Translations under genes and position numbers: made by a program
The notes under the pieces: generated by a model
What the model saw: the letters and a program-made list of their open reading frames with translations, nothing else
What the model was told of the DNA's origin: nothing
Database searches by the model: none
Part shown: in pieces, positions 1-56,340 of the stretch
Position numbering within the stretch: position 1 is the stretch's first letter
Layout of the letters: each line of letters starts with the position of its first letter
Origin: Eriocheir sinensis
Lineage: Eukaryota; Arthropoda; Malacostraca; Decapoda; Varunidae
Direction of reading: 5' to 3'
Assembly (NCBI RefSeq): GCF_024679095.1
Contig: NW_026111779.1
Span: 97,001 to 161,000 of the forward strand
Length of the DNA: 64,000 nucleotides

Positions 1-2180
1 TGATGTGTATTTTGCATATCTATTTCAATACAAATTTACTTTATTGTACATGCATTTTGTATATTTATTTTAATACAAACTTAACTATTTTATATGTATT
101 TTTTATATATATATATTTTTATGCAAATATGCGTTATTATATGGATATTTTGCATCTTTATTTTCATACAAATTTACATTATTTTATTGATATTCTCTTT
201 ATTTATTTTGATACGATTTAACATTATTCTATGTGTATTTTGTATATTTTTTTTATACATATTTACATTATTTAATGTTCATTTTGTATAAATATTTTAT
301 CCAAATTTATATTATTTTATTTGTATTTGTTTATATATTTTCATACAAATTTACATTATTTTATGTGTTTTTTGTATATATATTTTTCTACATATTTAAA
401 TTATTTTGTGTAATTTGTATCTACATTTTCATAAAAAAATTACGTTATTTTATTGTGTGTATAAGTATATATTTTGATACAAATTTTATACAAATTCATG
501 TTATTTAATGTGTATTTGCATATATATTTTCATACAAATTTATATTATTTTATGTGTATTTTTTCATATATTTCATTACAAATTTACCTTATTTTATGTT
601 TATTTTGTATATTTATTTCATTCAATTTTAAATTATTTGATGTGTATACTTGTATTTGTATTTAGGTTATTTTATGTGTATTTTGTATATATATTTTCAT
701 CCAAAATTACATTATTTTATTGGTATTTCTTAATTTAATTCGATACGAAATTAGATTATTTCATAGGTATTTTGTATACATATTTTTATACTCATTTACA
801 TTATCTAAAGTGTGTTTTGTATATATATTTTTATGCAAATTTATTTTATGTTCATTTTTGTACATATATTTTTATAGAAATTTGCGTTATTTTATGTATA
901 TAGTTTTATATAAATCTACGTTATTTTATGTGCATTTTGTATATTTATATTTATACAAATACACATTCTTTTATTGGTATATTGTTTATTTACATTTATA
1001 CGAATTTACATTATTTTATGTGTATTTTGTATACATTTTTTATACGTATTTACTTAATATTATGTGTATTTTGTATATGTATTTTTATAGAAATCTACGT
1101 TATTTTATGTGTATTCGTATATATATTTTGAAACAAATTTACATTATTTTATATGTTTTTTGCATATCTATTTCAATACAAATTTACCTTATTGTATGTG
1201 CATTTTGTATATTTATTTTAATACAAGTTCAAATATTTTATGTGTATTTTGGTATCAATAATTTTATAAAAAAGTGCGTTATTTTATAGGTATTTTGCAT
1301 CTTAATTTTCATTTTATATGTACTTTGTATATATATTTTTATACGCTCTTACATTATTTAATATTTATTTTGAATATATATTTTATACAAATTCATGGTA
1401 TTTTATGTGCATTTGTATATATATTTTCATATAAATTTACATTATTGTATGTGTACATATATTTTATTACAAATCTACCTTATTTTATGTTTATTTTGTA
1501 TGTGTATTTTGTATATTTATATTTATCCAAATACACATTCTTTTATTGGTATTTTGTTTATCTATTTTAATTCGAATTTACATTATTTTATGTGTATTTT
1601 GAATAAAAAATTTTATACGTATTTACTTAATTTTATGTGTATTTTGTATATATATTTTTATAGAAATCTACGTTTTTTTATTTGTATTCGTATATATATT
1701 TTGAAACAAATTTACATTGTTTTATATGTATTTTTGCATATCTCTTTCAATACAAATTTATCTTATTGTATATGCATTTTGTATATTTATTTCAATACAA
1801 ATTTAAAAATTTTATGTGTATTTTGGTATATATATATTTATAAGAAATGCGCTATTTTATGGGAATTTTGCATCTTTATTTTCATACAAATTTACATTAT
1901 TTTATTAATATTCTGTGTATTTATTTTGATACGATTTTACATTATTCTATTTGTTTTTTGTATATACTTTTTTATACATATTTACATTATTTAATGTGTA
2001 TCTTGCATATATATTTTATACAAATTTATTATCTATTATCTATTTTCATACAAATACACATTCTTTTCATGATATTTTGTTTATTTATTTTGACACGAAT
2101 TTACATTATTTGATATGTATTTTGTATATATATTTTTATACGTATTTACATAATTTCATATGTATTTTGTAAATATATTT
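1..2180 (+). repeat. Satellite block 1, T-rich orientation
   Basis: The block enters mid-array. About 1-1290 resembles 38775-40020, 47640-48950 and 57430-58670, sharing rare monomers such as those around 600-660 (TTCATTCAATTTTAAATTAT) and 720-770 (TTAATTTAATTCGATACGAA). From about 1290 to 2170 it resembles 3880-4730 and 6300-7150. The monomer carrying ATGCGCTATTTTATGGG at 1847, typical of the 1036-bp higher-order family, is present here. The block ends where TGTATTTTGTAAATATATTT is followed directly by A-rich repeats. Confidence 0.9.
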
Positions 2181-3211
2181 AATAGATATTCAAAATACAC
2201 ATAAAATAACCTAAATTTGTATCAAACTATATACAAAAATACACAAAAATATTTTAAATTTGTATGAAAATAAATATACAAAATACACATAAATTAGGTA
2301 AATTTGTATGGAAATACATACAAAATACACATAAAATAATGTAAATTTGAATGAAAATACATAAACAAATACACTTAAAATAACGTAAATTTGTATAAAA
2401 AAATATATACAAAACACAAATAGAATAATGTAAAATCGTATCAAAATAAATACACCGAATATTAAAAAAATAATGTAAATTTGTATGAAAATAAAGAGGC
2501 AAAATACCCATAAAATAACGCATTTTTTTATTTATAAAAATATATATACCAAAATACACATAAAAAAATTAGATTTGTATTAAAATAAATATATAAAAAA
2601 CACATACAATAAGGTAAATTTGTATTGAAATAGATACGCAAAATACATATAAAGCAATGTAAATTTGTTTCAAAATATGTATACGAATACACATAAAATA
2701 ACGTAGATTTCTATAAATATATATATATATATACAAAATACACATAAAATGAAGTAAATACGTATAAAAAAATGTATACAAAATACACATAAAATAATGT
2801 AAATTCGTATCAAAATAAATAAACAAAATACCAATAAAAGAATGTGTATTTGTATAAATATAAATATACAAAATACACATAAAATAACGTAAATTTATAT
2901 AAAACTATATACATAAATACACAGAAGTATTTAAATTTTTATGAAAATATATACAAAATACACACAAAATAAGCTAAATTTGAATTGAAATATATATACA
3001 AAATACATGAAATCAAGTAAATTTGTATCAAAATATTTATACAAATACACATATAATAACGTAAATTTGTATGAAAATATATAAACAAAATACACATTAA
3101 ATAATGTAAATACGTATAAAAAAAATGTGTACAAAATACACATATAATCATGTAATTCGTATCAAAATAAATAAACAAAATACCATTAAAATAATATAAA
3201 TTTGTGTGAGT
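2181..3211 (-). repeat. Satellite block 2, A-rich (inverted) orientation
   Basis: Monomers read as the reverse complement (AAAATACACATAAAATAA and relatives). The block matches 19380-20360 almost throughout, at an offset of about 17.15-17.17 kb. The match includes the unusual right edge, where TTTGTGTGAG runs into a T-rich TATTGTATATTTTTTCAATA segment. It is therefore part of a larger duplication that also carries the following + block. Confidence 0.9.
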
Positions 3212-3684
3212 GAACGTGTATATTGTATATTTTTTCAATACAAATTTACCTTATTATATACGCATTTTGTATATTAATTTTAATACAAATTTAATTATTC
3301 GATGTGTATTTTTGTATCTGTATTTTTATAAACATATGCTTTATTTTCTGGGTATTTTGCATCTTTATTTTCATACAAATATACATTATTTTATTGATAT
3401 TCTGCTTATTCATTTTGATACGAATTGACATTATTCTATGTGTATTTTGTATATATTTTTCATACAAATTTACGTTATTTTATGTGTATTTGTTTATATA
3501 TTTTGACACAAATTTACAATATTTTATGGCTATTTTGTATATACATTTCAAAAGAAATTTATCTAGTTTTATGTGTATTTTGTATATCTATTTTCATACA
3601 AACTCAAATTATTTCTATGTATTTTTGTATATATTTTAATACAAATTTTAGTTATGTTATGTGTATTTTGTAAATTTATTTTCA

Positions 3685-3835
<151 letters not shown>

Positions 3836-5159
3836 TTATTGGTGTTTTGTTGATTTATATTGATACGAATTTACATTATTTTATATGTACTTTGTATATA
3901 TATTTTTATACGCTTTTACATTATTTAATATTTATTTTGAATATATATTTTTATACAAATTCATGGTATTTTATGTGTATTTGTATATATATTTTCATAT
4001 AAATTTACATTATTTTATGTGTATTTTGTACATATATTTTATTACAAATCTACCTTATTTTATGTTTATTTTGTATATGTATTTTGTATATTTATATTTA
4101 TCCAAATACACATTCTTTTATTGGTATTTTGTTTATTTATTTTAAATCTAATTTACATTATTTTATGTGTATTTTGTATACATTTTTTTATACGTATTTA
4201 CTTAATTTTATGTGTATTTTGTATATATATTTTTATAGAAATCTACGTTTTTTTATTTGTATTCGTATATATATTTTGAACCAAATTTACATTGTTTTAT
4301 ATGTATTTTTGCATATCTCTTTGAATACAAATTTACCTTATTGTATGTGCATTTTGTATATTTATTTCAATACAAATTTAAATATTTTATGTGTATTTTG
4401 GTATATATATTTTTATAAGAAATGCGCTATTTTATGGGAATTTTGCATCCTTATTTTCATACAAATTTACATTGTTTTATTAATATTCGGTGTATTTATT
4501 TTGATACGAATTTACATTATTCTATTTGTTTTTTGTATATACTTTTTTTATACATATTTACATTATTTAATGAGTATCTTGCATATATATTTTATACAAA
4601 TTTATTATCTATTATCTATTTCTATACAAATACACATTCTTTACATGATATTTTGTTTATTTATTTTGACACGAATTTACATTATTTGATATGTATTTTG
4701 TATATATATTTTTATACGTATTTAAAAAATTTCATATGTATTTTGTATATATATTTCTATAGAAATCTACTTTATTTTATGTGTATTCGTATATATATTT
4801 TGAAACAAATTTACATTGTTTTATATGTATTTTTGAATATCTCTTTTAATACAAATTTACCTTACTGTATATGCATTTTGTATATTTATTTCAATACAAA
4901 TTTAAATATTTTATGTGTATTTTGGTATATTTATTTTTATAAAAAATGCGATAATTTTTGGGAATTTTGCATCTTTATTTTCATACAAATTTACATTATT
5001 TTATTGATATTATGTGTATTTATTTTGATACGATTTTACATTATTCTATTTGTTTTTTGTATATATATTTTTTTATACACATTTACATTCTTTAATGTGT
5101 GTCTTGCATATATATTTTATACAAATTTACGTTATTTTAAGTGTATTTGTTTATATATT

Positions 5160-6540
5160 TTCATTCAAATTTACATTATTTGATGTGTATTTTGTATATG
5201 TATTTCAATACAAATTTACCTAGTTTTATGTGTATTTTGTACATTTTTTTTCAAACAAATTTAAATTATTTTTGTGTATTTTTGTATATAGTTTTATACA
5301 AATTTAGGTTATTTTATGTACGCATTTACATTATTTAGTGTGTGTTTTGTATAAATATTTTTTTGCAAATTTACTTTATTTTATGTGCATTTTTGTACAT
5401 ATATTTTTATAGAAATTTGCGTTATTTGTATATGTTTTCTCATACAAATTTACATTATTTTATTGCTATTTAGTTTATTTATTTTGATACGAATTACATG
5501 ATTATATGTGTATTTTGTACATATTTTTTATACGTATTTACATTACTTAATGTGTATTTTGTTTATATATTTTTAAACAAATCTACGTTATTATATGTAT
5601 TTGTATAAATATTTTGATACAGATTTACATTATTTTATGTATTTTGTATGTACATTACAAATCAAATTTAGCTCATTTTAGCTGTATTTTGTATATATAT
5701 TTTCATACAAATTTAAATACTTCTGTGTATTTTTGTATATAGTTTTATACAAATTTACGATATTTTATGTGTATTTTGTATATTTATATTAATACAAATA
5801 CACTTTCTTTTACTGGTATTTTGTTTATTTATTTTGATACGATTTTTATGAATTTTTTGTATTCATTTTTTTTATACGTATTTACTTCATTTTATGTGTA
5901 TTTATTTTTATAGAAATCTACGTTATTTTATGTGTATTTTACAAATACACATTCTTTTATTGGTATATTGTTTATTTACATTTATACGAATTTACATTAT
6001 TTTATGTGTATTTTGTATATATTTTTTTATACGTATTTACTTAATATTATGTGTATTTTGTATATGTATTTTTATATAAATCTACGTTATTTTATGTGTA
6101 TTCGTATATATATTTTGAAACAAATTTACATTATTTTATATGTCTTTTGCATATCTATTTCAATACAAATTTACCTTATTGTATGTGCATTTTGTATATT
6201 TATTTTAATACAAGTTCAAATATTTTATGTGTATTTTGGTATCAATAATTTTATAAAAAATGCGTTATTTTATAGGTATTTTGCATCTTAATTTTCATTT
6301 TATATGTACTTTGTATATATATTTTTATACGCTTTTACATTATTTAATATTTATTTTTAATATATATTTTTATACAGATTCATGGTATTTTATGTGCATT
6401 TGTATATATATTTTCATATAAATTTACATTATTTTATGTGTATTTTGTACATATATTTTATTACAAATCTACCTTATTTTATGTTTATTTTGTATGTGTA
6501 TTTAGTATATTTATATTTATCCAAATACACATTCTTTTAT
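5160..6540 (+). repeat. Segment of about 1.37 kb present in one duplicate only
   Basis: Comparing the copies at about 3.2-9.7 kb and 20.4-25.3 kb, the offset is about 16,954 at 4946/21902 but about 15,584 from 7356/22937 onward. The left copy therefore holds roughly 1.37 kb of extra monomers between about 5160 and 6540. These resemble other parts of the window: 5894-6290 is close to 920-1290, and 5400-5700 is close to 40490-40740. The edges are approximate because the flanking monomers are similar to each other. Confidence 0.7.
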
Positions 6541-6840
6541 TGGTATTTTGTTTATTTATTTTAAATCGAATTTACATTATTTTATGTGTATTTTGTATAC
6601 ATTTTTTTAATCGTATTTACTTAATTTTATGTGTATTTTGTATATATATTTTTATAGAAATCTACGTTTTTTTATTTGTATTCGTATATATATTTTGAAA
6701 CAAATTTACATTGTTTTATATGTATTTTTGCATATATCTTTCAATACAAATTTACCTTATTGTATGTGCATTTTGTATATTTATTTCAATACAAATTTAA
6801 ATATTTTATGTGTATTTTGGTATATATATTTTTATAAGAA

Positions 6841-8900
6841 ATGCGCTATTTTATGGGAATTTTGCATCTTTATTTTCATACAAATTTACATTATTTTATT
6901 AATATTCGGTGTATTTATTTTGATACGAATTTACATTATTCTATTTGTTTTTTGTATACACTTTTATATACATTATTTAATGAGTATCTTGCATATATAT
7001 TTTATACAAATTTATTATCTATTATCTATTTTTATACAAATACACATTCTTTTCATGATATTTTGTTTATTTATTTTGACACGAATTTACATTATTTGAT
7101 ATGTATTTTGTATATATATTTTTATACGTATTTACATAATTTCATATGTATTTTGTATATATATTTCTATAGAAATCTACTTTATTTTATGTGTATTCGT
7201 ATATATATTTTGAAACAAATTTACATTGTTTTATATGTATTTTTGAATATCTCTTTTAATACAAATTTACCTTACTGTATATGCATTTTGTATATTTATT
7301 TCAATACAAATTTAAATATTTTATGTGTATTTTGGTATATATATTTTTATAAAAAATGCGATAATTTTTGGGAATTTTGCATCTTTATTTTCATACAAAT
7401 TTACATTATTTTATTGATATTCTGTGTATTTATTTTGATACGATTTTACATTATTCTATTTGTTTTTGTATATATTTTTTATACACATTTACATTATTTA
7501 ATGTGTATCTTGCATATATATTTTATACAAATTTACGTTATTTTAAGTGTATTTGTTTTTATATTTTCATTCAAATTTACATTTATTTTAATTCGAAATT
7601 ACATTATTTTATGTGTATTTTGTATACATTTTTTTATACGTATTTACTTAATTTTATGTGTATTTTGTATATATATTTCTATAGAAATCTACGTTTTTTT
7701 ATTTGAATTCGTATATATATTTTGAAACAAATTTACATTGTTTTATATGTATTTTTGCATATCTCTTTCAATACAAATTTACCTTATTGTATGTGCATTT
7801 TGTATATTTATTTCAATGCAAATTTAAATATTTTATGTGTATTTTGGTATATATATTTTTATAAGAAATGCGCTATTTTATGGGAATTTTGCATCTTTAT
7901 TTTCATACAAATTTACATTATTTTATTAATATTCGGTGTATTTATTTTGATACGATGTAACATAATTCTATTTGTTTTTTGTATATACTTTTTTATACAT
8001 ATTTACATTATTTAATGTGTATCTTGCATATATATTTTATACAAATTTATTATCTATGATCTATTTTCATACAAATACACATTTTTTTCATGATATTTTG
8101 TTTATTTATTTTGACACGTATTTACATTATTTGATATGTATTTTGTATATATATTTTTATACGTATTTACATAATTTCATATGTATTTTGTATATATATT
8201 TCTATAGAGATCTACTTTATTTTATGTGTATTCGTATATATATTTTGAAACAGATTTACATTGTTTTATATGTATTTTTGAATATCTCTTTCAATACAAA
8301 TTTACCTTACTGTATATGCATTTTGTATATTTATTTCAATACATATTTAAATATTTTATGTGTATTTTGGTAAATATATTTTTATAAAAAATGCGATAAT
8401 TTTTGGGAATTTTGCATCTTTATTTTCATACAAATTTACATTATTTTATTGATATTCTGTGTATTTATCTTGATACGATTTTACATTATTCTATGTATAT
8501 TTTGTATATATATATTTCATACAAATGAACGTTATTTTATGTGAATTTGTTTTCATTTCATACAAATTTACATTATTTTATGTGTATTTTGTACATGTAT
8601 TTAAATACAAATTTAACTAATTATATGTGTATTATGTATATCTATTTTCATACAAATTGAAAGTAATTTTGTGTATTTTAGTATATATTTTTATTCAAAT
8701 TTTCGTAATTTTATGTGAATTTTGTATATTTATTTTCCTACATATATACGTTCTTTTATCGGAATTTTGTTTATTTATTTTGATACGAGTTTTCATTATT
8801 TTAGGTGTATTTGATATATATATTTTTATACTTATTTACATAATTTTATATGTATTTTGAATATATATTTTCATAGAAATTTACTCTATTTTATGTGTAT
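6841..8900 (+). repeat. Compound higher-order repeat of about 1036 bp, copy set A
   Basis: Two marker monomers alternate. ATGCGCTATTTTATGGG occurs at 6841 and 7868, and ATGCGATAATTTTTGGG at 7356 and 8391. Like markers are 1027 and 1035 bp apart, and unlike markers about 515-523 bp apart. One unit is about 23 monomers, read as two shortened passes through the 16-type order (types 8, 9, 10, then a jump to 1-7 in each half). Type numbers are defined in the entry for 10108-10821. Confidence 0.85.
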
Positions 8901-11352
8901 TCGTATATATATTTTGATACAAATTTACATTATTTATGTGTATTTCGCATATCTATTTCAATACAAATTTTCTTTATTGTATGTGCCTTTTGTATATTTA
9001 TTTTGATGCAAATTTAATTATTTTATGTGTATTTTTGTATATATATTTTTAAACAAATATGCGTTATTATATGGGTATTTTGCATCTTTATTTTCATACA
9101 AATTTACATTATTTTATTGATTGTCTGTTTATTTATTTTGATACGATTTTACGTTATTCTGTGTATTTTGTATATATATTTTTAGACATTTTTACATTAT
9201 TTAATGTATATTTTGTACATATATTTTATGGAAATTTACGTTATCTTATGTGTATTTGTTTATATATTTTCATACAAATTTACATTATTTTATGTGTATT
9301 TTGTATATGTATTTCAATAAAAATTTGCCTAATTTCATTTGTATTTTGCATATCTATTTTCAAACAAATTTAAATTATTTTTGTGTATTTTTGTATTATT
9401 TTTATACAAATTTTTTTTATTTTATTTGTATTTTGTATATATATTTTCCTACACATACATTCTTTTAGAGGAAATTTTGTTTATTTATTTTGATACGAAT
9501 TTATATTATTTTATGTGTATTTTGTATATATATTTTTCTATGTATTTACATTATTTTATGTGTATTTTGTATATATATTTTCATAAAAATTTACGTAATT
9601 TTATTGTGTGTATTCGTATATATTTTGATAAAAAATTTCATTATTTTATGTGTTTTTTGCATATCTATTTCAATAAAAATCTACCTTATTGTATGTGTAT
9701 TTTGTATATTTATTTTAATACAAATTTAATTATTTTATGTGTATTTTTGTATATATTTTTTTTTTAAATATAAGATATTTTATGGGTAATTTGCATCTTT
9801 AATTATATAAATTTTTACATTACGTACATATCTTTTATACGTATTTACATTATTTAATGTGTATTTTGTTTATATATTTTTATACAAATTTACGTTATTA
9901 TATGTGTATTTGAATATATATTTTGATACAAATTTACATTATTTTATGTATTTTCTATATTTATTTCAATTCAAATTTAGCTTATTTTGTCTTTTGTATA
10001 TCTATTTTCATACAAATTTAAATATTTTTCTTTATTTTTGTATATAGTTTTATACAATTTTACGTTATTTTATGTGTATTTTGTATATTTATATTTATAC
10101 AAGTAAACATTCTTTTATTGGCATTTAGTTTATTTATTTTGATACGAATTTACATTATTTTATGTGTATTTTGTATACATTTTCTTATACGTATTTACTT
10201 CATTTTATGTGTATTTTGTATATATATTTTATAGGAATCTACGTTATTTTATGAGTATTCGTATGTATATTTTGAAACAAATTTACATTGTTTTATATGT
10301 ATTTTGCATATCTATTTCAATACAAATTTACCTTATTGTATGTGCATTTTGTATATTTATTGTAATACAAATTTAAATATTTTATGTGCATTTTGGTATA
10401 TATATTTTCATAAAAGATGCGTTGTTTTATGGGTATTTTGCATCTTTATTTTCATACAAATTTACATTATTTTATTAATATTCTGTGTATTTATTTTGAT
10501 ACTATTTTACATTATTCTATTTGTGTTTTGAATATATTTTTTTTATACATATTTACACGATTTAATGTGTATTTTCTATATATATTTCATACAAATTTTC
10601 GTTATTTTAAGTGTATTTGTTTATATATTTTTATTCAAATTTACATTATTTGATGTGTATTTTGTATATGTATTTCAATAGAAATTTACCTAATTTCATG
10701 TGTATTTTGTATATATATTTTATACAAATTCAAATTATTTTTTGTGTATTTTTGTATAGAGTTTTATTCAAATTTACAATATTTTATGTGTATTTTGTAT
10801 ATCTATTTTCATACAAATACACATTCTTTTATTGATATTTTGTTTATTTATTTTGATGCGAATTTACATTATTTAATGTGTATTGTGTATATATATTTTT
10901 ATACGTATTTACGTCATTTCATGTGTATTTTGTATATATATTTCTAAAGAAATATACGTTATTTTATGTGTTTCGTATATATATTTTGAAACAAATATAC
11001 ATTGTTTTATGTGCATTTTGCATATTTTTTCAAAACAAATTTACCTTATTGTACGTGCATTTTGTATATTAATTTTAATACAAATTTAGCTATTCTATGT
11101 GTATTTTTGTATATGTATTTTTATAAAAATATGCTTTATTTTATGGGTATTTTGCATCTTTATTTTAATACAAAATTACATTATTTTATTGACCTTCTGT
11201 GTATTTATTTTGATACGATTTTACATTATTCTATGTATATTTTGTATATCTATTTTATACCAATGTACGTTATTTTATGTGAATTTGTTTTCATTTCATA
11301 CAAATTTACATTATTTTATGTGAATTTTGTACATGTATTTAAATACAAATTT
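8615..11352 (+). repeat. Large unit of about 2.74 kb, copy 1
   Basis: The marker AACTAATTATATGTGTAT recurs at 8615 and 11353, a spacing of 2738 bp. The same unit is found twice in tandem at 24200-29948. Within it, the TTCTTTT landmark of monomer type 16 recurs at 8751, 9470, 10110 and 10824 (spacings 719, 640 and 714), so it is roughly four passes of the 16-type order. Positions 9059-9373 closely match 24644-24958 and 27661-27975. Confidence 0.85.
10108..10821 (+). repeat. Complete 16-monomer higher-order repeat, about 714 bp
   Basis: The best exemplar of the ordered unit runs from CATTCTTTT at 10108 to the same landmark at 10822. Type signatures in order: 1 TTTATTTATTTTGATACG; 2 TTATACGTATTTACTTC; 3 TATAGGAATCTACGTT; 4 ATTCGTATGTATATTTTG; 5 TTTTGCATATCTATTTC; 6 TGTGCATTTTGTATA; 7 AAGATGCGTTGTTTTA; 8 GGGTATTTTGCATCTT; 9 AATATTCTGTGTATTT; 10 CTATTTGTGTTTTG; 11 AATTTTCGTTATTTT; 12 AAGTGTATTTGTTTATA; 13 TATATGTATTTCAATAG; 14 AAATTCAAATTATTTTT; 15 TGTATAGAGTTTTATTC; 16 CATACAAATACACATTC. 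The same order, complete or with deletions, recurs across the window. Confidence 0.85.
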
Positions 11353-11620
11353 AACTAATTATATGTGTATTTTGTATATCTATTTTCATACAAATTGAAA
11401 TTAATTTTGTGTATTTTTGTATATATTTTTATTCAAATTTTCGTAATTTTATGTGTATTTTGTATATTTATTTTCCTACAAATATACGTTCTTTTATCGG
11501 AATTTTATTTATTTATTTTGATACGAATTTTCATTTTTTTAGGTGTATTTGATATATATATATTTTTACTTATTTACATATTTTATATGTATTTTGAATA
11601 TATATTTTCATAGAAATCTA

Positions 11621-11640
11621 CTCTATATGTATATGTATAG
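11621..11640. other. Inversion junction J1, copy a
   Basis: The sequence CTCTATATGTATATGTATAG joins T-rich monomers on the left to A-rich monomers on the right. The identical 20-mer is at 30211-30230, and its reverse complement is at 42461-42480 and 49886-49905. Flanks match as well (TATTTTCATAGAAAT on one side, AAAATACACATGAAATAATC on the other), so this is one ancestral junction copied four times. Confidence 0.9.
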
Positions 11641-14600
11641 AAAATACACATGAAATAATCTAAATTCGTATCGAAATAAATAAACAAAATACCGATAAAA
11701 TAATGTAATTTTGAATGAAAATATATATAGAAAATACACATAAAATAACGTAAATACAAATAAATATATACACATCAAATGATTTGAATTTGAATGAAAA
11801 TAGATATAAAAATAAACTTAAAATAAGGCAAATTTATAATGAAATATATATACAAAATACACATAAAATAATGTAGATTTGTTTCAAAATATATATACGA
11901 ATACACATAAAATAACGTAGATTTCTATAGAAATATATATACAAAATATACATGAAATGTTATAAATACGTATAAAAATATATATACTAAATACACATTA
12001 AATAATGTAAATTCGTGTCAAAATAAATAATTAAAATATCAATAAAAGAATGTGTATTTGTATGAAAATACATATACAAAATACACATAAAATAACGTAA
12101 ATTTGTATAAAACTATATATAAAAATACACAAAATTAAGTTAAATTTGTATGAAAATAAATATACAAAATACACATAAAATAATGTAAATTTGAATGAAA
12201 ATATATAAACAAATACACTTAAATTAACATAAATTTGTATAAAATATATATAAATAATGTAAATATGTATAAAATATATATATACAAAACACAAATAGAA
12301 TAATGTAAAATCGTATTAAAATAAATACACAGAATGTAAATACAATAATGTAAATTTGTATGAAAATAAAGATGCAAAATACCCATAAAATAACGCATTT
12401 TTTTATAAATATACAAACTACACATGAAAGGATGTAAATACGTATCAAAATATATATACAAAATACACATTAAATAATGTAAATTCGCGTCAAAATAAAT
12501 AAACAAAATGTCAATTAAAGAATGTGTATTTGTATGAAAATAAATATACAAAATACACATAAGATAACATAAATTTGTATAAAACTATATACAAAAATAC
12601 ACAAAAATAATTTAAATTTGTATGAAAATAAATATACAAAATACACATAAAATTAGGTAAATTTGTATTGAAATACATATACAAAATACACATAAAATAC
12701 TGTAAATTTAAATGAAAATACATAAACAAATACACTTAAAATAACGTAAATTTGTATAAAAAAATATATAAAAAACACAAATAGAATAATGTCAAATCGT
12801 ATCAAAATAAAAACACAGAATATTAATAAAATAATGTAAATTTGTATGAAAATAAAGAAGCAAAATACCCATAAAATAACGCATTTTTTTTAAATATATA
12901 TACAAAAATACACATAAAAAAATTATTTGTATTAAAATAAATATACAAAATACACATACAATAAGGTAAATCTGTATTGAAATAGATATGCAAAATACAT
13001 ATAAAACAATGTAAATTTGTTTCAAAATATATATACGAATACACATAAAATAACGTAGATTTGTATAAAAATATATATACAAAATACACGTAAAATGAAG
13101 TAAATACGTATAAAAAAATGTATACAAAATACACATAAAATAACGTAAATTCGTATCAAAATAAATAAACAAAATACCAATAAAAGAATGTGTATTTGTA
13201 TAAATATAAATATACAAAATACACATAAAATAACGTAAATTTGTATAAAACTATATACAAAAATACACAGAAGTAATTAAATTCGTATGAAAATAGATAT
13301 ACAAAATACAGATAAAATAAGCTAAATTTGAATTGAAATGTATATACAAAACATAAAGTAATGTAAATTTGTATCAAAATATTTATAAAAATACATATAA
13401 TAACGTAAATTTGTTTAAAAATATATAAACAAAATACACATTAAGTAATGTAAATATGTATAAAAAATATGTACAAAATACACATATAATCATGTAATTC
13501 GTATCAAACTAAATAAACAAAATAGCAATAAAATAATGTAAATTTGTATGAGAAAACATATACAAATACATATAAAATAACGCTAATTTCTATAAAAATA
13601 TATGTCCAAAAATGAACGTAAAATAAATTAACTTTGGATAAAAATATATATACAAAACACACATTAAATAATGTAAATGTGTACATAAAATAACCTAAAT
13701 TTGTATAAAACTATATACAAAAATACACAAAAATAATTTAAATTTGTATGAAAAGAAATATACAAAATACACATAAAATTAGGTTAATTTCTATTGAAAT
13801 ACATATACAAAATACATATAAAATAATGTAAATTTGAAAGAAAATATATAAACAAATACACATATAATAACGTAAATTTGTATGAAATATATATACAAAA
13901 TACACATTAAATAATGTAAATATGTATAAAAAAATATATAAAAAAACACAAATAGAATAATGTAAAATCGTATCAAAATAATACACAGAATATTAATAAA
14001 ATAATGTAAATTTGTATGAAAATTAAGATGCAAAATACCTATAAAATAACGCATTTTTTATAAAATTATTGATACCAAAATACACATAAAATATTTGAAT
14101 TTGTATCAAAATAAATATACAAAATGCACATACAATAAGGTAAATTTGTATTGAAATAGATATGCAAAATACATATAAAATAATGTAAATTTGTTTCAAA
14201 ATATATATGCGAATACACATAAAATAACGTAGATTTCTATAAAAATACATATACAAAATAACCATAAAATTAAGTAAATACGTATAAAAAAATGTATACA
14301 AAATACACATAAAATAATGTAAATTAGTATAAATATAAATAAACAATATAGCAATAAAAGAATGTGTATTTGTATAAATATAAATATACAAAATGCACAT
14401 AAAATAACGTAAATTTATATAAAACTATATACATAAAATAACGCAAATTTCTATATAAAAATATATGTACAAAAATAAACATAAAATAAATTTGCATAAA
14501 AATATATATACAAAACACACATTAGATAATGTAAATGAGTATAAAAATATGTATACAAAATACCTATGAAATAATCTAAATTCGTATCGAATTAAATTAA

Positions 14601-16630
14601 GAAAATACCAATATAATAATGTAATTTTGGATGAAAATATATATACAAAATACACATAAAATAACCTAAATACAAATACAAATATACACATAAAATAATT
14701 TAAAATTGAATGAAATAAATATACAAAATAAACATAAAATAAGGTAAATTTGTAATGAAATATATGAAAAAATACACATAAAATAATATAAATTTGTATG
14801 AAAATATATATACAAATACACATTAAATAACATGAATTTGTATAAAATTTGTATCAAAATATATACGAATACACACAATAAAATAACGCAATTTTTTTTA
14901 TGAAAATGTATATACAAAAAACACATAAAATAATGTAAATTTGGATAAAATATATATACAAAATAAACCTTAAATAATGTAAATATGTATAAAAAATATA
15001 TACAAAATACACATAGAATAATGTTAAATCGAGAATATCAATAAAATAATGTAAATTTTGTATGAAAATAAAGCTGCAAAATATCCATATAATAACGCAT
15101 ATTTGCATAAAAATATATATACAAAAATACATATAAAATAATTAAATTTGTATTAAAATAAATATACAAAATGCACGTACAGTAAAGAAAATTTGTATTG
15201 AAATAGATATGCAGAATACACATAAATATTGTAAATTTGTATCAAAATATATATACGAATACTCATAAAATATAGTAAATTTCTATGAAAATATACATAC
15301 AAAATAGATATACAAAATACACATATAACTAGTTAAATTTGTATTTAAATACATGTACAAAAAACACATAAAATAATGTAGATTTGTATGAAATGAAAAC
15401 AAATACATTTTATATAAAATATATATACAAAATACACATAGAATAATGTAAAATCATATCAAAATAAATACACAGAATATCAATAAAATAATGTAAATTT
15501 GTATGAAAATAAAGATGCAAAATACCCATAAAATAAAGCATATTTTTATAAAAAAAACATATACAAAAATACACATAGATTAATCAAATTTGTATTAAAA
15601 TTAATATACAAAATGCACATACAATAAGGTAAATTTGTATTAAAAAAATATGCAAAATACACATAAAACAATGTAAATTTGTTTCAAAATATATATACGA
15701 ATACACATAAAATAACGCAGATTTCTATAGAAATATATATACAAAATACACTTGAAATAATGTAAATACGAATAAAAATATATATACAAAATACACATTA
15801 AATAATGTTAATTCGTGTCAAAATAAATAAACAAAATATCATGAAAAGAATGTGTATTTGTATGAAAATAGATATACAAAATACACATAAAATAACCTAA
15901 ATTTGTATAAAACTATATACAAAAATACACAAAAATAATTTAAACTTGTATGAAAATAAATATACAAAAAACATATAAAATTAGGTAAATTTGTATTGAA
16001 ATACATATACAAAATACACATAAAATAATGTAAATTTGAATGAAAATATATAAACATATAGACTTAAAATAACGTAAATTGGTATTAAATATATATACAA
16101 AAAACACTTTAAATAATGTAAATATGTATAAAACAATATATACAAAACATAAATAAAATAATGTAAAATCGTATCAAAATACAGAAAATATTAATAAAAT
16201 AATGTAAATTTGTATGAAAATCAAGATGCAAAATACCCATAAAATAATGCATTTTTTATAAAAATATATATACGAAAAAACATAAAATATTTGATTTTGT
16301 ATTAAAATAAAGAGATATACAAAATACTCATAAAATAAGCTAAATTTGAATTGAAATATATATACAAAATACATAAAATAATGTAAATTTGTATCAAAAT
16401 ACTTATACAAATACACATATAATAACGTAAATTTGTATAAAAATATATAAACAAAATACACATTAAATAATGTAAATACGTATAAAAAAAATGTACAAAA
16501 TACACAAATACTCATGTAATTCGTATCAAAATAAATAGACAAAATACCAATAAAATAATGTAAATTTCTATGAGAAAACATATACAAAATACACATAAAT
16601 AACGCAAATATCAATAAAATATATATAATA
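11631..16630 (-). repeat. Satellite block 4, A-rich orientation
   Basis: Reverse-complement monomers throughout. Together with the next block up to about 17.85 kb it is an inverted copy of 36.1-42.48 kb. Both ends of the arm are defined by shared junctions (J1 at 11621/42461 and J2 at 16611/37357). The order of rare monomers is conserved in reverse: 14425-15223 mirrors 38775-39735, and 16174-16614 mirrors 37392-37828. Confidence 0.88.
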
Positions 16631-16650
16631 TAATATATTTTTATACATAT
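16611..16650. other. Inversion junction J2, copy a
   Basis: A-rich monomers end in AATATCAATAAAATATATAT, then ATAATATAATATATTTTTAT leads into T-rich monomers. The reverse complement is found at about 37357-37400 and 46217-46260. The core is almost a palindrome of A and T. Confidence 0.88.
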
Positions 16651-18926
16651 TTAAAATATTTAATGTATATTTTGTATATATATTTATCCAAATTTACGTT
16701 ATTTTATATGTATTTGTTTATATATTTTCATACAAATTTACATTATTTTATGTGAGTTTTGTATATGTATTTCAATACAAATTTGCCTAACTTTATGTGT
16801 ATTTTGCATATCTATTTTCAAACAAATTTAAATTATTTTTGTGTATTTTTGTATATATTTTTATACAAATTTTAGTTATTTTATTTGTTTTTTGTATATA
16901 TATTTTCCTACAAATATACATTCTTTTATTGGAATTTTGTGTATTTAATTTTTTACGAATTTACATTATTTTATGTGTATTTTGTATATATATTTTTCTT
17001 CGTATTTAAATTATTTTATGTGTATTTTATATATACATTTTCATAAAAATTTACGTTATTTTATTGTGTGTATTCGTATATATTTTGAAACAAATTTTAT
17101 ACAAATTCATGTTATTTTATGTGTATTTGTATATATATTTCATACAAATTTATATTATTTTATATGTATTCATACATATATTTTATTACAAATTTACCTT
17201 ATTTTATGTTTATTTTGTATATTTATTTCATTTAATATAATCAAATTTAAATTTAATGTATATGCATTTTGTATATTAATTTTAGTACAAATTTAATTAT
17301 TCTATGTGTATTTTTCTATTTGTATTTTTATAAAAATATGCTTTAATTTATGGGTATTTTGCATCTTTATTTTCATACAAATTTACGTTATTTTATTAAT
17401 ATTCTGCTCATTCATTTTTATACGATTTGACATTATTCTATGCGTATTTTGTATATATTTTTCATACAAATTTACGTTATTTTATGTGTATTTGTTTATA
17501 TATTTTGACACAAATTTACAATATTTTATGGGTATTTTGTATATATATTTCAAAGAAATTTACCTAGTTTTATGTGTATTTTGAATATCAATTTTCATTC
17601 AAACTCAAATTATTTTTATGTATTTTTGTATATATTTCAATACAAATTTTAGTTAGGTTATGTGTATTTTGTAAATCTATTTTCATTCAAATATATATTA
17701 TTTTATTAGTATTTTGTTGATTTAAATTGATACGAATTTACATTATTTTATATGTACTTTGTATATATATTTTTATACGCATTTACATTATTTAATTAAT
17801 TTATTTTGAGTATATAATTTTATACAAATTCATGGTATTTTATGTGTATTTGTATATATATTTTTATATAAATTTACATTATTTTATGTGTATTTTGTAC
17901 ATATATTTTTTTACAAATCTACCTTATTTTATGTTTATTTTGTATGTGTATTTTGTATATTTATATTTATCCAAATACACATTCTTTTATTGGTATTTTG
18001 TTTATTTATTTTAATTCGAATTTACATTATTTTATGTGTATTTTGTATACATTTTTTTATACGTATTTACTTAATTTTATGTGTATTTTGTATATATATT
18101 TTTATAGAAATCTACGTTTTTTTATTTGAATTCGTATATATATTTTGAAACAAATTTACATTCTTTTATATGTATTTTTGCATATCTCTTTCAATACAAA
18201 TTTACCTTATTGTATGTGCATTTTGTATATTTATTTCAATGCAAATTTAAATATTTTATGTGTATTTTGGTATATATTTTTATAAGAAATGCGCTATTTG
18301 ATGGGAATTTTGCATCTTTATTTTCATACAAATTTACATTATTTTATTAATATTCGGTGTATTTATTTTTATACGATTTTACATTACTCTATTTGTTTTT
18401 TGTATATATATTTTTTTATACATATTTACATTATTCAATGTGTATCTTGCATATATATTACATACAAATTTGTTATCTATTAATTATTTTCATACAAATA
18501 CACATTCTTTTCATGATATTTTGTTTATTTATTTTGTCACGAATTTACATTACTTAATATGTATTTTAAATATATATTTTTATACGTATTTACATAATTT
18601 CATGTGTATTTTGTATATATATTTCTATAGAAATCTACGTTATTTTATGTGTATTCGTATATATATTTTGAAACAAATTTACACTGTTTTATTTGTATTT
18701 TGCGTTTTTTTTTTCAATACAAATTTACCTTATTGTATGTGTGCATTTTGTATATTAATTTTAATACAAATTTAATTATTCTATGTGTATTTTTGTATAT
18801 GTATTTAAAAAAAAAAATGCTTTATCATATAGGTATTTTGCATCTTTATTTTCATACAAATTTAAATTATTTTATTGATATTCTGTGTACCTATTTTGAT
18901 ACGATTTTACATTATTCTATGTATAA
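16631..18926 (+). repeat. Satellite block 5, T-rich orientation
   Basis: 16797-17850 is the reverse complement of about 36095-37207. From about 17640 to 18926 it parallels 32040-33490 and 54930-56340 and ends at the same junction (J3). At about 18570, where those two paralogs carry long (TA)n arrays, this copy has only an ordinary monomer (ATTTTAAATATATATTTTTA), so it keeps an unexpanded allele of that site. Confidence 0.88.
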
Positions 18927-18945
18927 CAAAAATAAATACAGAATA
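18919..18945. other. Inversion junction J3, copy a
   Basis: T-rich TTCTATGTATAAC is followed by A-rich AAAAATAAATACAGAATACAC. The same junction occurs at 33489 and 56336, with GTATAACAAAAATAAATACA shared by all three. Confidence 0.9.
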
Positions 18946-20360
18946 CACAAAAATAGATATGCAAAATACATATAAACAATGTAAATTTGTTTCAAAATAT
19001 ATATTCGAATACACATGAAATAAGGTAGATTTCTATAAAAATATATATGCAAAATACACATAAAATTAAGTAAATACGTATAAAAAATGTATACAAAATA
19101 TACATAAAATAATGTAAATTAGTATCAAAATAAATAAACAAAATACCAATAAAAGAATGTGTATTTGTATAAATATATATATAGAAAATACACATTAAAT
19201 AATATAAATTTGTTTAAAACTATACAAAATACACATGAAATGATGTAAATACGTATAAAAATATATATACAAAATACACATTAAATAATGTAAATTAGCG
19301 TCAAAATAAATAAACAAAATATCAATAAAAGAATGTGTATTTGTATGAAAATAGATATACAAAATACACATAAAATAACCTAAATTTGTATCAAACTATA
19401 TACAAAAATACACAAAAATATTTTAAATTTGTATGAAAATAAATATACAAAATACACATAAATTAGGTAAATTTGTATGGAAATACATATACAAAATACA
19501 CATAAAATAATGTAAACTTGAATGAAAATACATAAACAAATACACTTAAAATATCGTAAATTTGTATAAAAAAATATATACAAAACACAAATAGAATAAA
19601 GTAAAATCGTATCAAAATAAATACACAGAATATTAATAAAATAATGTAAATTTGTATGAAAATAAAGAGGCAAAATACCCATAAAATAACGCATTTTTTT
19701 TATTTATAAAAATATATATACCAAAATACACATAAAGAAATTAGATTTGTATTAAAATAAATATATAAAAAACACATACAATAAGGTAAATTTGTATTGA
19801 AATAGATACGCAAAATACATATAAAGCAATGTAAATTTGTTTCAAAATATGTATACGAATACACATAAAATAACGTAGATTTCTATAAATATATATACAA
19901 AATACACATAAAATGAAGTAAATACGTATAAAAAAATGTATACAAAATACACATAAAATAATGTAAATTCGTATCAAAATAAATCAACAAAATACCAATA
20001 AAAGAATGTGTATTTGTATAAATATACAAAATACACATAAAATAACGTAAATTTATATAAAACTATATACATAAATACAGAAGTATTTAAATTTGTATGA
20101 AAATATATACAAAATACAAAATAAGCTAAATTTGAATTGAAATATGTATACAAAATACATGAAATAAAGTAAATTTGTATCAAAATATTTATACAAATAC
20201 ATATAATAACGTAAATTTGTATGAAAATATATAAACAAAATACACATTAAATAATGTAAATACGTATAAAAAAATGTGTACAAAATACACATATAATCAT
20301 GTAATTCGTATCAAAATAAATAAACAAAATACCATTAAAATAATATAAATTTGTATGAGT
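18927..20360 (-). repeat. Satellite block 6, A-rich orientation
   Basis: 19380-20360 is the partner of 2212-3211, with the same monomers in the same order and small indels. The 18927-19380 part starts at junction J3 and is not shared with block 2. The right edge (TATGAGTAAACGTTTATATTG) matches the block 2/3 junction near 3205-3225. Confidence 0.88.
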
Positions 20361-20833
20361 AAACGTTTATATTGTATATTTTTTCAATACAAATTTACCT
20401 TATTATATACGCATTTTGTATATTAATTTTAATACAAATTTAATTATTCGATGTGTATTTTTGTATCTGTATTTTTATAAACATTTGCTTTATTTTTTGG
20501 GTATTTTGCATCTTTATTTTCATACAAATATACATTATTTTATTGATATTCTGCTTATTCATTTTGATACGAATTGACATTATTCTATGTGTATTTTGTA
20601 TATAGTTTTCATACAAATTTACGTTATTTTATGTGTATTTGTTTATATATTTTGACACAAATTTACAATATTTTATGGCTACTTTGTATATACATTTCAA
20701 AAGAAATTTACCTAGTTTTATGTGTATTTTGTATATCTATTTTCATACAAACTCAAATTATTTCTATGTAGTTTTGTATATATTTTAATACAAATTTTAG
20801 TTATGTTATGTGTATTTTGTAAATTTATTTTCA

Positions 20834-20984
<151 letters not shown>

Positions 20985-21901
20985 TGGTGTTTTTTTTTTT
21001 TTTATTGATACTAATTTATATTATTTTATATGTACTTTGTATATATATTTTTATACGCTTTTACATTATTTAATATTTATTTTGAATATATATTTTTATA
21101 CAAATTCATGGTATTTTATGTGTATTTGTATATATATTTTCATATAAATTTACATTATTTTATGTGTATTTTGTACATATATTTTATTACAAATCTACCT
21201 TATTTTATGTTTATTTTGTATATGTATTTTGTATATTTATATTTATCCAAATACACATTCTTTTATTGGTATTTTGTTTATTTATTTTAATTCGAATTTA
21301 CATTATTTTATGTGTATTTTGTATACATTTTTTTATACGTATTTACTTCATTTTATGTGTATTTTGTATATATATATTTATAGAAATCTACGTTATTTTA
21401 TGTGTATTCGTATACATACAAATTTACATTGTTTTATTAATATTCGGTGTATTTATTTTGATACGAATTTACATTATTCTATTTGTTTTTTGTATATACT
21501 TTTTTATACATATTTACATTATTTAATGAGTATCTTGCATATATATTTTATACAAATTTATTATCTATTATCTATTTCTATACAAATACACATTCTTTAC
21601 ATGATATTTTGTTTATTTATTTTGACACGAATTTACATTATTTGATATGTATTTTGTATATATATTTTTATACGTATTTACATAATTTCATATGTATTTT
21701 GTATATATATTTCTATAGAAATCTACTTTATTTTATGTGTATTCGTATATATATTTTGAAACAAATTTACATTGTTTTATATGTTTTTTTGAATATCTCT
21801 TTTAATACAGATTTACCTTACTGTATATGCATTTTGTATATTTATTTCAATACAAATTTAAATATTTTATGTGTATTTTGGTATATTTATTTTTATAAAA
21901 A

Positions 21902-24430
21902 ATGCGATAATTTTTGGGAATTTTGCATCTTTATTTTCATACAAATTTACATTATTTTATTGATATTCTGTGTATTTATTTTGATACGATTTTACATTAT
22001 TCTATTTGTTTTTTGTATGTATTTTTTTTATACACATTTACATTATTTAATGCGTATCTTGCATATATATTTTATACAAATTTACGTTATTTTAAGTGTT
22101 TTTGTTTTTATATTTTCATTCAAATTTACATTTATTTTAATTCGAAATTACATTATTTTATGTGTATTGTGTATACATTTTTTATACGTATTTACTTAAT
22201 ATTATGTGTATTTTGTATATATATTTTTATAGAAATCTACGTTTTTTTATTTGTATTCGTATATATATTTTGAAACAAATTTACATTGTTTTATATGTAT
22301 TTTTGCATATCTCTTTCAATACAAATTTACCTTATTGTATGTGCATTTTGTATATTTATTTCAATACAAATTTAGATATTTTATGTGTATTTTGGTATAT
22401 ATATTTTTATAAGAAATGCGCTATTTTATGGGAATTTTGCATCTTTATTTTCATACAAATTTACATTATTTTATTAATATTCGGTGTATTTATTTTGATA
22501 CGAATTTACATTATTCTATTTGTATTTTGTATACACTTTTATATACATATTTACATTATTTAATGAGTATCTTGCATATATATTTTATACAAATTTATTA
22601 TCTATTATCTATTTTTATACAAATACACATTCTTTTCATGATATTTTGTTTATTTATTTTGACACGAATTTACATTATTTGATATGTATTTTGTATATAT
22701 TTTTATACGTATTTACATAATTTCATATGTATTTTGTATATATATTTCTATAGAAATCTACTTTATCTTATGTGTATTCGTATATATGTTTTGAAACAAA
22801 TTTACATTGTTTTACATGTATTTTTGAATATCTCTTTTAATACAAATTTACCTTACTGTATATGCATTTTGTATATTTATTTCAATACAAATTTAAATAT
22901 TTTATGTGTATTTTGGTATATATATTTTTATAAAAAATGCGATAATTTTTGGGAATTTTGCATCTTTATTTTCATTCAAATTTACATTATTTTATTGATA
23001 TTCTGTGTATTTATTTTGATACGATTTTACATTATTCTATTTGTTTTTTGTATATATTTTTTTTATACACATTTACATTATTTAATGTGTATCTTGCATA
23101 TATATTTTATACAAATTTACGTTATTTTAAGTGTATTTGTTTTTATATTTTCATTCAAATTTACATTTATTTTAATTCGAAATTACATTATTTTATGTGT
23201 ATTTTGTATACATTTTTTTATACGTATTTACTTAATTTTATGTGTATTTTGTATAAATATTTCTATAGAAATCTATGTTTTTTTATTTGAATTCGTATAT
23301 ATATTTTGAAACAAATTTACATTGTTTTATATGTATTTTTGCAAATCTCTTTCAATACAAATTTACCTTATTGTATGTGCATTTTGTATATTTATTTCAA
23401 TGCAAATTTAAATATTTTATGTGTATTTTGGTATATATATTTTTATAAGAAATGCGCTATTTTATGGGAATTTTGCATCTTTATTTTCATACAAATTTAC
23501 ATTATTTTATTAATATTCGGTGTATTTATTTTGATACGATGTTACATTATTCTATTTGTTTTTTGTATATACTTTTTTATACATATTTACATTATTTAAT
23601 GTGTATCTTGCATATATATTTTATACAAATTTATTATCTATGATCTATTTTCATATAATTACACATTTTTTTCATGATATTTCGTTTATTTATTTTGAAA
23701 CGTATTTACATTATTTGATATGTATTTTGTATATATATTTTTATACGTATTTATATAATTTCATATGTATTTTGTATATATATTTCTATAGAGACTACTT
23801 TATTTTATATGTATTCGCATATATATTTTGAAACAGATTTACATTGTTTTATATGTATTTTTGAATATCTCTTTCAATACAAATTTACCTTACTGTATAT
23901 GCATTTTGTATATTTATTTCAATACAAATTTAAATATTTTATGTGTATTTTGGTAAATATATTTTTATAAAAAATGCGATAATTTTTGGGAATTTTGCAT
24001 CTTTATTTTCATACAAATTTACATTATTTTATTGATATTCTGAGTATTTATTTTGATACGATTTTACATTATTCTATATATATTTTGTATATATATATAT
24101 TTCATACAAATGAACGTTATTTGATGTGAATTTGTTTTCATTTCATACAAATTTACATTATTTTATGTGTATTTTGTACATGTATTTAAATACAAATTTA
24201 ACTAATTATATGTGTATTATGTATATCTATTTTCATACAAATTGAAATTAATTTTGTGTATTTTAATATATATTTTTATTCAAATTTTCGTAGTTTTATG
24301 TGAATTTCGTATATTTATTTTCCTACAAATATACGTTCTTTTATCGGAATTTTGTTTATTTATTTTGATACGAGTTTTCATTATTTTAGGTGTATTTGAT
24401 ATATATATTTTTAAACTTATTTACATAATT
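21902..24430 (+). repeat. Compound higher-order repeat of about 1036 bp, copy set B
   Basis: ATGCGATAATTTTTGGG occurs at 21902, 22937 and 23974 (spacings 1035 and 1037). ATGCGCTATTTTATGGG occurs at 22416 and 23452 (spacing 1036). Unlike markers are about 521-522 bp apart within units. This is the most regular copy set in the window. Confidence 0.88.
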
Positions 24431-29948: not shown

Positions 29949-30210
29949 AACTAATTATATGTGTATTTTGTATATCTATTTTCATACAAATTGATTTGTG
30001 TATTTTTGTATATATTTTTTTCAAATTTTCGTAATTTTATGTGTATTTTGTATATTTATTTTCCGACAAATATACGTTCTTTTATCGGAATTTTATTTAT
30101 TTATTTTGATACGAATTTTCATTTTTTTTAGGTGTATTTGAAATATATATTTTTATACTTATTTACATAATTTTATATGTATTTTGAATATATATTTTCA
30201 TAGAAATTTA

Positions 30211-30230
30211 CTCTATATGTATATGTATAG
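30211..30230. other. Inversion junction J1, copy b
   Basis: Identical 20-mer to 11621-11640, with matching flanks on both sides. The downstream A-rich block again parallels that of copy a for several hundred bases (30231-30880 against 11641-12260). Confidence 0.9.
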
Positions 30231-31910: not shown

Positions 31911-33490
<1,580 letters not shown>

Positions 33491-33583
33491 ATAACAAAAA
33501 TAAATACAGAATGCACAAAAACAGATATTCAAAATACATATAAACAATGTAAATTTGTTTCAAAATATATATACGAATACACA
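33491..33583 (-). repeat. Mini-inversion of about 93 bp (two monomers)
   Basis: Two A-rich monomers (AAATACAGAATGCACAAAAA to ATATATACGAATACACATGA) sit between T-rich blocks. The left edge is junction J3 and the right edge is ACATGACATGGGTATTTTGA. The same mini-inversion with both edges is at 56341-56431. At 18927 only the left edge is shared and the A-rich run continues for 1.4 kb. Confidence 0.88.

Positions 33584-54201: not shown

Positions 54202-56340
<2,139 letters not shown>

What the first reader, a model, noticed from the sequence alone, without database searches (positions are those of the whole stretch)
10108..10821. A fixed 16-type monomer order forms a higher-order repeat of about 715 bp
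Reading the array monomer by monomer shows about 16 distinguishable types in a constant order, for example GAAATCTACGTT (3), then ATTCGTATATATATTTTG (4), CATATCTATTTC (5), TGTGCATTTTG (6), ATGGGTATTTTGCATC (8) and TTCTGTGTATTTATTTTGAT (9). One full pass is about 714 bp. Most of the window can be written as passes of this order with deletions and joins. Alpha-satellite-like higher-order organisation in a 45-bp AT-rich minisatellite is noteworthy, and this is the main hidden structure of the window.
Basis: seen in the sequence. Interest (0 to 1): 0.8.

Follow-up and report, generated by a model that had tools for sequence, protein, structure and literature searches.

The report
Scrambled crustacean satellite with 16-monomer order

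Summary
Positions 10108-10821 are exactly 16 monomers in phase. Labelling the window's other monomers by nearest reference monomer alone gives the next type in 97.3% of 560 confident neighbour pairs (70.2% of all 1179 pairs; shuffled 6%). Types trained on the window keep the order in 98.2% and 98.4% of confident pairs in the flanking array and in 481 of 490 pairs on other contigs. Three corrections. (1) The 16-mer is a dimer of an older 8-mer: types i and i+8 are 87% alike against 81% permuted (0 of 20,000 reach it). (2) Complete passes are a minority; the commonest return distance is 12 monomers (about 540 bp), then 16, 15 and 8. (3) It is not alpha-satellite-like in homogenisation: next-pass neighbours are no more alike than distant same-type copies. 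Yet 98% of the 207-kb array has another copy at 92% or more, it collapses to about 20 kb of distinct sequence, and copy pairs lie at uniform distances with about 40% inverted, though the two most identical long pairs are local. Best reading: an old higher-order repeat, scrambled by long-range copying of kilobase blocks in both orientations, in a decapod-like 1.77-Gb genome. Function unproven, probably heterochromatic.

The parts
1..64000 (.). whole window: 45-bp AT-rich (16% GC) satellite array, part of an array running from contig position 54,317 to between 261,000 and 270,001 (window = contig 97001-161000)
10108..10821 (+). reference pass: 16 monomers, types A-P (1-16), 714 bp
10822..11486 (+). 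next pass, 15 monomers (665 bp); the order is kept, with one monomer lost around types 10-12
   Evidence: which monomer was lost is read by eye
11487..11620 (+). start of a third pass, cut by a strand switch
10108..10464 (+). first half of the pass (types 1-8), one copy of the inferred older 8-mer
   Evidence: types i and i+8 87% identical vs 81% permuted, 0 of 20,000
10465..10821 (+). second half of the pass (types 9-16), the other copy of the older 8-mer
11622..11630 (.). strand-switch junction (+ to -) of the commonest class, 10 copies in the 207-kb array; in this window also near 30215, 42474 and 49899
16628..16632 (.). strand-switch junction (- to +) of the second class, 9 copies in the array; in this window also near 37387 and 46235
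3210..3215 (.). strand-switch junction (- to +) of the third class, 7 copies in the array; in this window also near 20364
3688..3831 (.). (AT)n tract of 144 bp inside the array; others at 20877, 32971, 55867, 59786 and 61717
8050..9822 (+). example of a kilobase block that recurs at 23634-25406 with the same internal spacing and nearly the same type string
   Evidence: segment table; type strings

Best explanation
An old higher-order repeat in a decapod-like genome. A 45-bp AT-rich monomer diverged into 8 types in a fixed order; the 8-mer was doubled to a 16-mer (about 714 bp) and this spread through arrays on many contigs (the sequence pattern is shown; the order of events is inferred). Tandem copying of the 16-mer has left no recent trace. 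What now keeps the array alike is copying of blocks (0.5-7 kb in the pairs measured; 0.5 kb was my lower cut) to other places in the same array, mostly without regard to distance and in both orientations, plus some local duplication and some exchange between arrays (pattern shown, process inferred). The likeliest enzymology is break repair by strand invasion or template switching into any homologous copy (break-induced replication), or reinsertion of excised circles; simple unequal exchange cannot make inversions. The function is probably passive or (peri)centromeric heterochromatin (inferred only).
For: Order. 8-mer doubling. Next-pass copy 0.893 identical, no better than the mean distant same-type copy (0.896). 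98% of array bases have a copy at 92% or more over 200 bp; 19.6 kb of distinct sequence in 206.7 kb. 994 copy pairs at 93% or more: distances fit uniform placement (KS p = 0.38), identity does not fall with distance (rho = -0.008), 13-17% lie within 15 kb in each identity bin up to 99% against 14% expected. Toy simulation: local duplication gives median distance 0.107 of the array and no inversion; random placement (half inverted by construction) gives 0.28; observed about 0.30 and about 40% inverted. 80 strand switches: 34 junction classes, 64 of the 80 in classes of two or more when switches under 300 bp apart are not compared (without that care gave 32 and 67). Same order on other contigs, also in diverged sequence.
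Against: The two most identical pairs of 2 kb or more (99.2%, 2.9 and 3.7 kb) both lie 9.0 kb apart in the same orientation, so the newest long duplication seen is local and tandem; they are 2 of 9 such pairs at 97.5% or more, in a table cut at 20,000 matches. Inverted pairs are 32-45% by identity bin against 46.8% expected from strand composition, so same-strand copying is mildly favoured. Unselected pieces of other arrays match this array less well (median 94.9%, n = 15) than this array matches itself (97.5%, n = 120; p = 0.004), so exchange between arrays is weaker than within. No reads were available to check the assembly.
Confidence: 0.55

Rival explanations
1. A conventional higher-order-repeat array kept alike by unequal exchange of the 16-mer between sister chromatids, as in human alpha satellite.
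For: A fixed order of types and variant pass lengths of 12, 15 and 16 monomers is what unequal exchange makes, and it is a natural origin for the 8-mer and 16-mer. Local duplication of larger blocks still happens.
Against: Adjacent passes are no more alike than distant ones; copy pairs show no fall of identity with distance; about 40% of copy pairs are inverted, which unequal exchange does not give.
Confidence: 0.12
2. The scrambling and inversions are largely assembly artefacts, from misjoined or misoriented pieces of a simple array.
For: The assembly has 2158 contigs, some with round lengths such as 800,000 and 1,115,000, which suggests scaffolding software cut and moved pieces; no reads were available.
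Against: The array has no N. 64 of 80 switches belong to classes seen two or more times, with matching sequence across the junction. The commonest junction is crossed by a 96.5-98.5% match on 6 of 7 other contigs fetched by similarity to the 714-bp query and on 1 of 2 C56 stretches fetched by place. Random misjoins do not recur. The order test does not depend on kilobase-scale joins.
Confidence: 0.1
3. The blocks are the inside of a mobile element that carries the repeat from place to place.
For: 98-100% copies of the 714-bp pass on 32 contigs in both orientations, the window's own included.
Against: The left border of the array is a sharp change from about 42% to 16% GC with no element end recognised by eye; no gene was recognised in the window (its 90 ORFs look low-complexity; they were not searched against families). 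The search of the border sequence in the genome did not complete, so this is not excluded.
Confidence: 0.07
4. The array is functional centromere DNA, with its inverted subarrays acting as fold-back elements, as proposed for Tribolium.
For: Large AT-rich blocks, mixed orientation and recurrent inversion sites resemble Tribolium madens (PMC13081366: abstract, section 7 part 2 and search passages seen). In the four scaffolds over 8 Mb probed (C56, C57, C68, C69) array was found within about 1.2 Mb of one end.
Against: Related 45-bp sequence lies in several separate places on some scaffolds, e.g. five regions on C2, and C57 and C68 have further matches at 9.5 and 1.46 Mb, so not one place per chromosome. 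The two arms at a switch are no more alike than arms of different switches (0.817 vs 0.828).
Confidence: 0.25

Closest known systems
Human/primate alpha-satellite higher-order repeats (PMC8997354, search passages seen; monomer length and near-identity of tandem copies recalled)
   Same: Distinct monomer types in a fixed order forming a longer repeat; nested history of duplication (here 8-mer to 16-mer).
   Different: 45-bp monomer instead of 171 bp; passes in tandem have diverged instead of being nearly identical; frequent strand switches; kilobase blocks scrambled.
Tribolium madens major/minor satellites with macro-dyad symmetries (PMC13081366: abstract, section 7 part 2 and search passages seen)
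   Same: Kilobase subarrays in opposite orientation with recurrent, conserved inversion sites; intermingling of sequences from different contigs; higher-order units built from one short ancestor.
   Different: No sequence comparison was made; 45 bp instead of about 110 bp; 16-type order; identity of the two arms not above control; place on chromosomes unknown. That paper says such symmetries were documented only in Tribolium.
Decapod satellite DNAs (PMC10454600, PMC13130569: search passages only)
   Same: Decapod genomes carry many satellite families; AT-rich satellites are discussed there as packing heterochromatin.
   Different: In the passages seen no 45-bp family with a 16-type order is described; 'higher-order' had no occurrence in PMC13130569. 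Supplements were not readable, so a match there cannot be excluded.

Membership tests
Higher-order-repeat satellite (general sense) | Several distinguishable monomer types recurring in a constant order | tested here: met
   97.3% of 560 confident pairs, 70.2% of all 1179 pairs, vs 6% shuffled; flanks 98.2% of 543 and 98.4% of 1181 confident pairs
Alpha-satellite-type HOR array | Successive HOR copies in tandem nearly identical, while monomers within one copy differ strongly (recalled) | tested here: not met
   Next-pass copies 0.893 vs 0.896 for the mean distant same-type copy; best 714-bp copy within 1.5 kb 81.9%, best further away 95.6%
Alpha-satellite-type HOR array | Long head-to-tail orientation | tested here: not met
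   81 strand runs, median 1.78 kb, in 207 kb
Alpha-satellite-type HOR array | Centromere location with CENP-A | not testable with these tools
   No chromatin data; chromosome position of the contig unknown
Tribolium-type macro-dyad satellite arrays | Multi-kilobase subarrays in opposite orientation | tested here: met
   81 runs, median 1.78 kb
Tribolium-type macro-dyad satellite arrays | Recurrent, conserved inversion sites | tested here: met
   64 of 80 switches in recurrent classes; commonest junction on 6 of 7 similarity-fetched contigs and 1 of 2 stretches fetched by place
Tribolium-type macro-dyad satellite arrays | Symmetry of the two arms about the inversion site | tested here: inconclusive
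   Arm-arm identity not above control (0.817 vs 0.828); arm-length symmetry not measured
Tribolium-type macro-dyad satellite arrays | (Peri)centromeric on all chromosomes | not testable with these tools
   No cytogenetics; arrays or related sequence at scaffold ends and inside scaffolds
Crab poly d(A-T) satellite (recalled) | Almost pure alternating AT | tested here: not met
   45-bp monomers with 16% GC; only six pure (AT)n tracts of 40 bp or more, 100-220 bp each, in the window

The most novel reading that the evidence does not exclude
A satellite array in which copying is largely blind to distance and orientation: kilobase blocks drawn from a roughly 20-kb repertoire are copied anywhere in a 200-kb array, so the short-range 16-mer order survives as a fossil while every location is refreshed from far away. 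If so, this is a mode of concerted evolution distinct from the neighbour-driven one, together with inverted-subarray architecture outside Tribolium.
Probability: 0.4. Interest if true: 0.65.

Novelty: new variant of a known kind. Interest (0 to 1): 0.5.

Why it matters
How satellite arrays stay alike is an old question, with unequal exchange and break-induced replication as main models (PMC8997354, passages seen). This array keeps two layers apart, an old fixed monomer order and a more recent scrambling of kilobase blocks, so the models make different predictions that long reads can test. It also shows inverted-subarray architecture, which one 2026 paper says was documented only in Tribolium (PMC13081366, passage), in a genome that looks decapod.

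Tried and rejected
20+25-bp sub-repeat inside the 45-bp monomer, suggested by Tandem Repeats Finder: self-identity at lags 20 and 25 was 0.47, below the mean shuffled maximum (0.534), so dropped. A 4-mer or 2-mer stage before the 8-mer: not supported (offset 4: 1153 of 5000 permutations as good; offset 2: 4915 of 5000). Macro-palindromes with matching arms: not above control. Precise fold-back at the inversion sites: looking over the junction columns by eye gave no clear excess of matching phases; no test was run. 'The closest relatives of the unit lie on other contigs' (first impression) was rejected as a selection effect after an unselected comparison. One array per chromosome: not supported. 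The first junction count (67 of 80 in 32 classes) compared neighbouring switches whose windows overlap; the recount gives 64 of 80 in 34 classes. The ORFs were not followed: monomers of 45 = 3 x 15 bp with a stop-free frame would give long low-complexity frames. Pattern in viral contigs: 0. Total array amount in the genome: could not be estimated because the pattern searches meant for it did not complete.

Full report
Setting. The window is positions 97001-161000 of contig C1553 (354,266 bp) of an unnamed 1.765-Gb genome in 2158 contigs. Apart from short interruptions and (AT)n tracts, all of it is 45-bp AT-rich satellite at about 16% GC. The array starts at contig position 54,317, at a sharp change from about 42% GC, and ends between 261,000 and 270,001. 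The 206.7 kb of it that I hold contains no N. The left flank carries reverse-transcriptase and transposase-like frames and microsatellites (names by eye, the first one also). The genome has 38 hemocyanin-domain matches; the one fetched is far closer to two hemocyanins (6l8s, 1hc1, E about 1e-130; shrimp and spiny lobster by recall) than to the next group (E about 1e-54 and weaker; scorpion and horseshoe crab by recall). So it is most likely a decapod crustacean; the species was not identified.

The observation. A cyclic profile of the monomer cut the window into 1501 pieces, 1327 of them full (another cut phase was used later). I labelled each monomer by the nearest of the 16 reference monomers, without using its neighbours, and left the reference pass out. 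The next label is +1 in 70.2% of all 1179 pairs, 88.7% of 693, 97.3% of 560 and 97.8% of 407 as the margin filter is raised; shuffled order gives about 6%. Type profiles made from the window and applied outside it give 98.2% of 543 pairs to the left and 98.4% of 1181 to the right (confident monomers only, 3191 of 4215 full ones in the whole array). Clustering without reference agrees. Nine stretches of other contigs give 481 of 490 confident pairs; seven of these were fetched by similarity to the query and two by place on C56. Small samples from C62, C2 and C29, chosen because they hold the general consensus, show a long run (C62), shorter runs (C2) and fragments (C29) of the same order in diverged sequence. 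Autocorrelation has the strong 45-bp peak and weak peaks at 665, 624 and 710.

First, the 16-mer is a dimer. Consensus types i and i+8 are 86.9% identical against 80.7% for permuted pairs, none of 20,000 permutations reaching it, and they share 1.75 derived states on average against 0.19-0.50 at other offsets. No earlier doubling is detectable. Second, complete passes are few: 13 runs from A to P in 207 kb (labels of any confidence), 35 of 995 runs with 16 or more monomers in order from any starting type; same-type monomers come back mostly after 12, 16, 15 or 8 monomers. Third, the order is an old layer. Same-type monomers are 89.5% alike, i/i+8 80.3%, other types 74.9% (monomers whose both neighbours fit). 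A monomer is as different from its copy in the next pass (0.893, 1159 monomers) as from distant same-type copies on average (0.896), while its best copy over 5 kb away is 0.991, a maximum over many. For 714-bp windows the best copy within 1.5 kb averages 81.9% and the best further one 95.6%; the further one wins in 129 of 132 (6 of the 138 windows had no near hit).

The recent layer. At 92% identity over at least 200 bp, 98.0% of array bases have another copy (median 16 matching pieces, which may overlap), and only 19.6 kb of 206.7 kb is not a copy of something earlier in the array. I kept 994 copy pairs of at least 500 bp and 93% (pairs cut by query-chunk edges, shorter ones and near-duplicates were dropped). 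Their distances fit uniform placement (KS p = 0.38; at 96% or more, p = 0.54; at 98% or more, p = 0.50 with 24 pairs) and identity does not depend on distance (rho = -0.008; same orientation -0.066, p = 0.11; inverted +0.096, p = 0.06). Between 32% and 45% are inverted depending on identity, about 40% in all; 46.8% is expected from the strand composition. A toy simulation shows that local duplication would give short distances and no inversion, while random placement, half inverted by construction, gives distances like those seen. It is a sketch, not a fit. Against this, a table made with other settings, cut at 20,000 matches, has as its two most identical pairs of 2 kb or more (99.2%) two that lie 9.0 kb apart in the same orientation, 2 of 9 at 97.5% or more: the newest long duplication is local. 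The array changes strand 80 times (runs under 60 bp ignored). Not comparing switches under 300 bp apart, they fall into 34 junction classes, the largest with 10, 9 and 7 copies, 16 with a single one; 64 of 80 are in classes of two or more. So most switches were inherited inside copied blocks. Between arrays, 40 of 40 scored candidates for the 714-bp query, the window's own copy among them, matched at 98-100% and full length, on 32 contigs (2754 candidates were seen, 40 scored). That is a best-of selection: 400-bp pieces of other arrays not chosen by similarity match this array at a median of 94.9% (n = 15), less than this array matches itself (97.5%, n = 120).

Place in the genome. In four scaffolds over 8 Mb, probes and hits found array at 11.0-11.3 Mb and at the very end of C56 (12.2 Mb), at 11.8-12.02 Mb (the end) of C57, at 0.49-0.62 Mb of C69 (8.6 Mb) and at 0.06-0.2 Mb of C68 (8.9 Mb). 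These four were picked because the 714-bp query hit them, and most of their length was not probed. The exact general consensus of 39 bp occurs 422 times in the genome (reversed control 0), in places listed on 37 of contigs C1-C74 and in several regions of some scaffolds, C57 and C68 included (listing cut at its first places), but not once in this array. So related sequence is widespread and not confined to one place per scaffold.

Mechanism. Shown: the fixed order, its 8-mer origin, lack of likeness between neighbours, block copies at all distances and in both orientations, recurrent junctions. Inferred: unequal exchange or slippage made the 8-mer and doubled it; later repair by strand invasion into any homologous copy, or reinsertion of circles, copied blocks around, with local duplication as well. 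A/T tracts recur every 11.15 bp, a quarter of the monomer (without a shuffled control), which may bend the DNA; bending was not computed. Function is inferred only: heterochromatin, perhaps near centromeres.

Known relatives. The order resembles alpha-satellite higher-order repeats (PMC8997354, passages), but two features of that class were tested and not met: likeness of tandem copies (the standard is recalled) and head-to-tail orientation. The orientation pattern resembles the macro-dyad arrays of Tribolium madens (PMC13081366; abstract, section 7 part 2 and passages), whose authors say they were documented only in that genus. A later search for the term found one more paper, which has it only in its reference list (PMC13427858). 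Searches for higher-order repeats or satellites in crustaceans, crabs and decapods showed no description of this family in the listings and passages seen; most subscription papers are not in the library and supplements could not be read.

Noticed in passing
window 3688-3831, 20877-20976, 32971-33160, 55867-55996, 59786-59891, 61717-61936: Pure (AT)n tracts of 100-220 bp interrupt the array, the first two at the same point of the monomer-type string (after O-P).
   Followed up: partly
window, whole: 90 ORFs of 100 aa or more with a repeating F/Y/I-rich motif; probably a by-product of 45 = 3 x 15 bp and a stop-free frame, not genes.
   Followed up: no
whole genome G000: The exact 39-bp general consensus occurs 422 times in the genome but not in this 207-kb array: other arrays carry a different mix of monomer variants.
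   Followed up: partly
contig C1553 about 167.8-185.8 kb (right of the window): A recent tandem duplication with a period of about 9 kb, 99.2% identical, the youngest long event seen in the array.
   Followed up: partly
L029-L034 (C18, C48, C98, C60, C70): Pieces of mitochondrial COX1 in scaffolds of up to 21.6 Mb, i.e. probably nuclear copies of mitochondrial DNA.
   Followed up: no
G000 C70:5387868-5461418 and C4:25531603-26032201: Clusters of hemocyanin genes, many with the middle domain in one open frame.
   Followed up: no
L036 (end of contig C1553): The contig ends in another repeat, unlike the 45-bp array (seen in its last 200 bases).
   Followed up: no
L058, L074, L081: Probes at C56 11.9 Mb, C69 8.0 Mb and the start of C68 read all N: assembly gaps or withheld stretches.
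   Followed up: no
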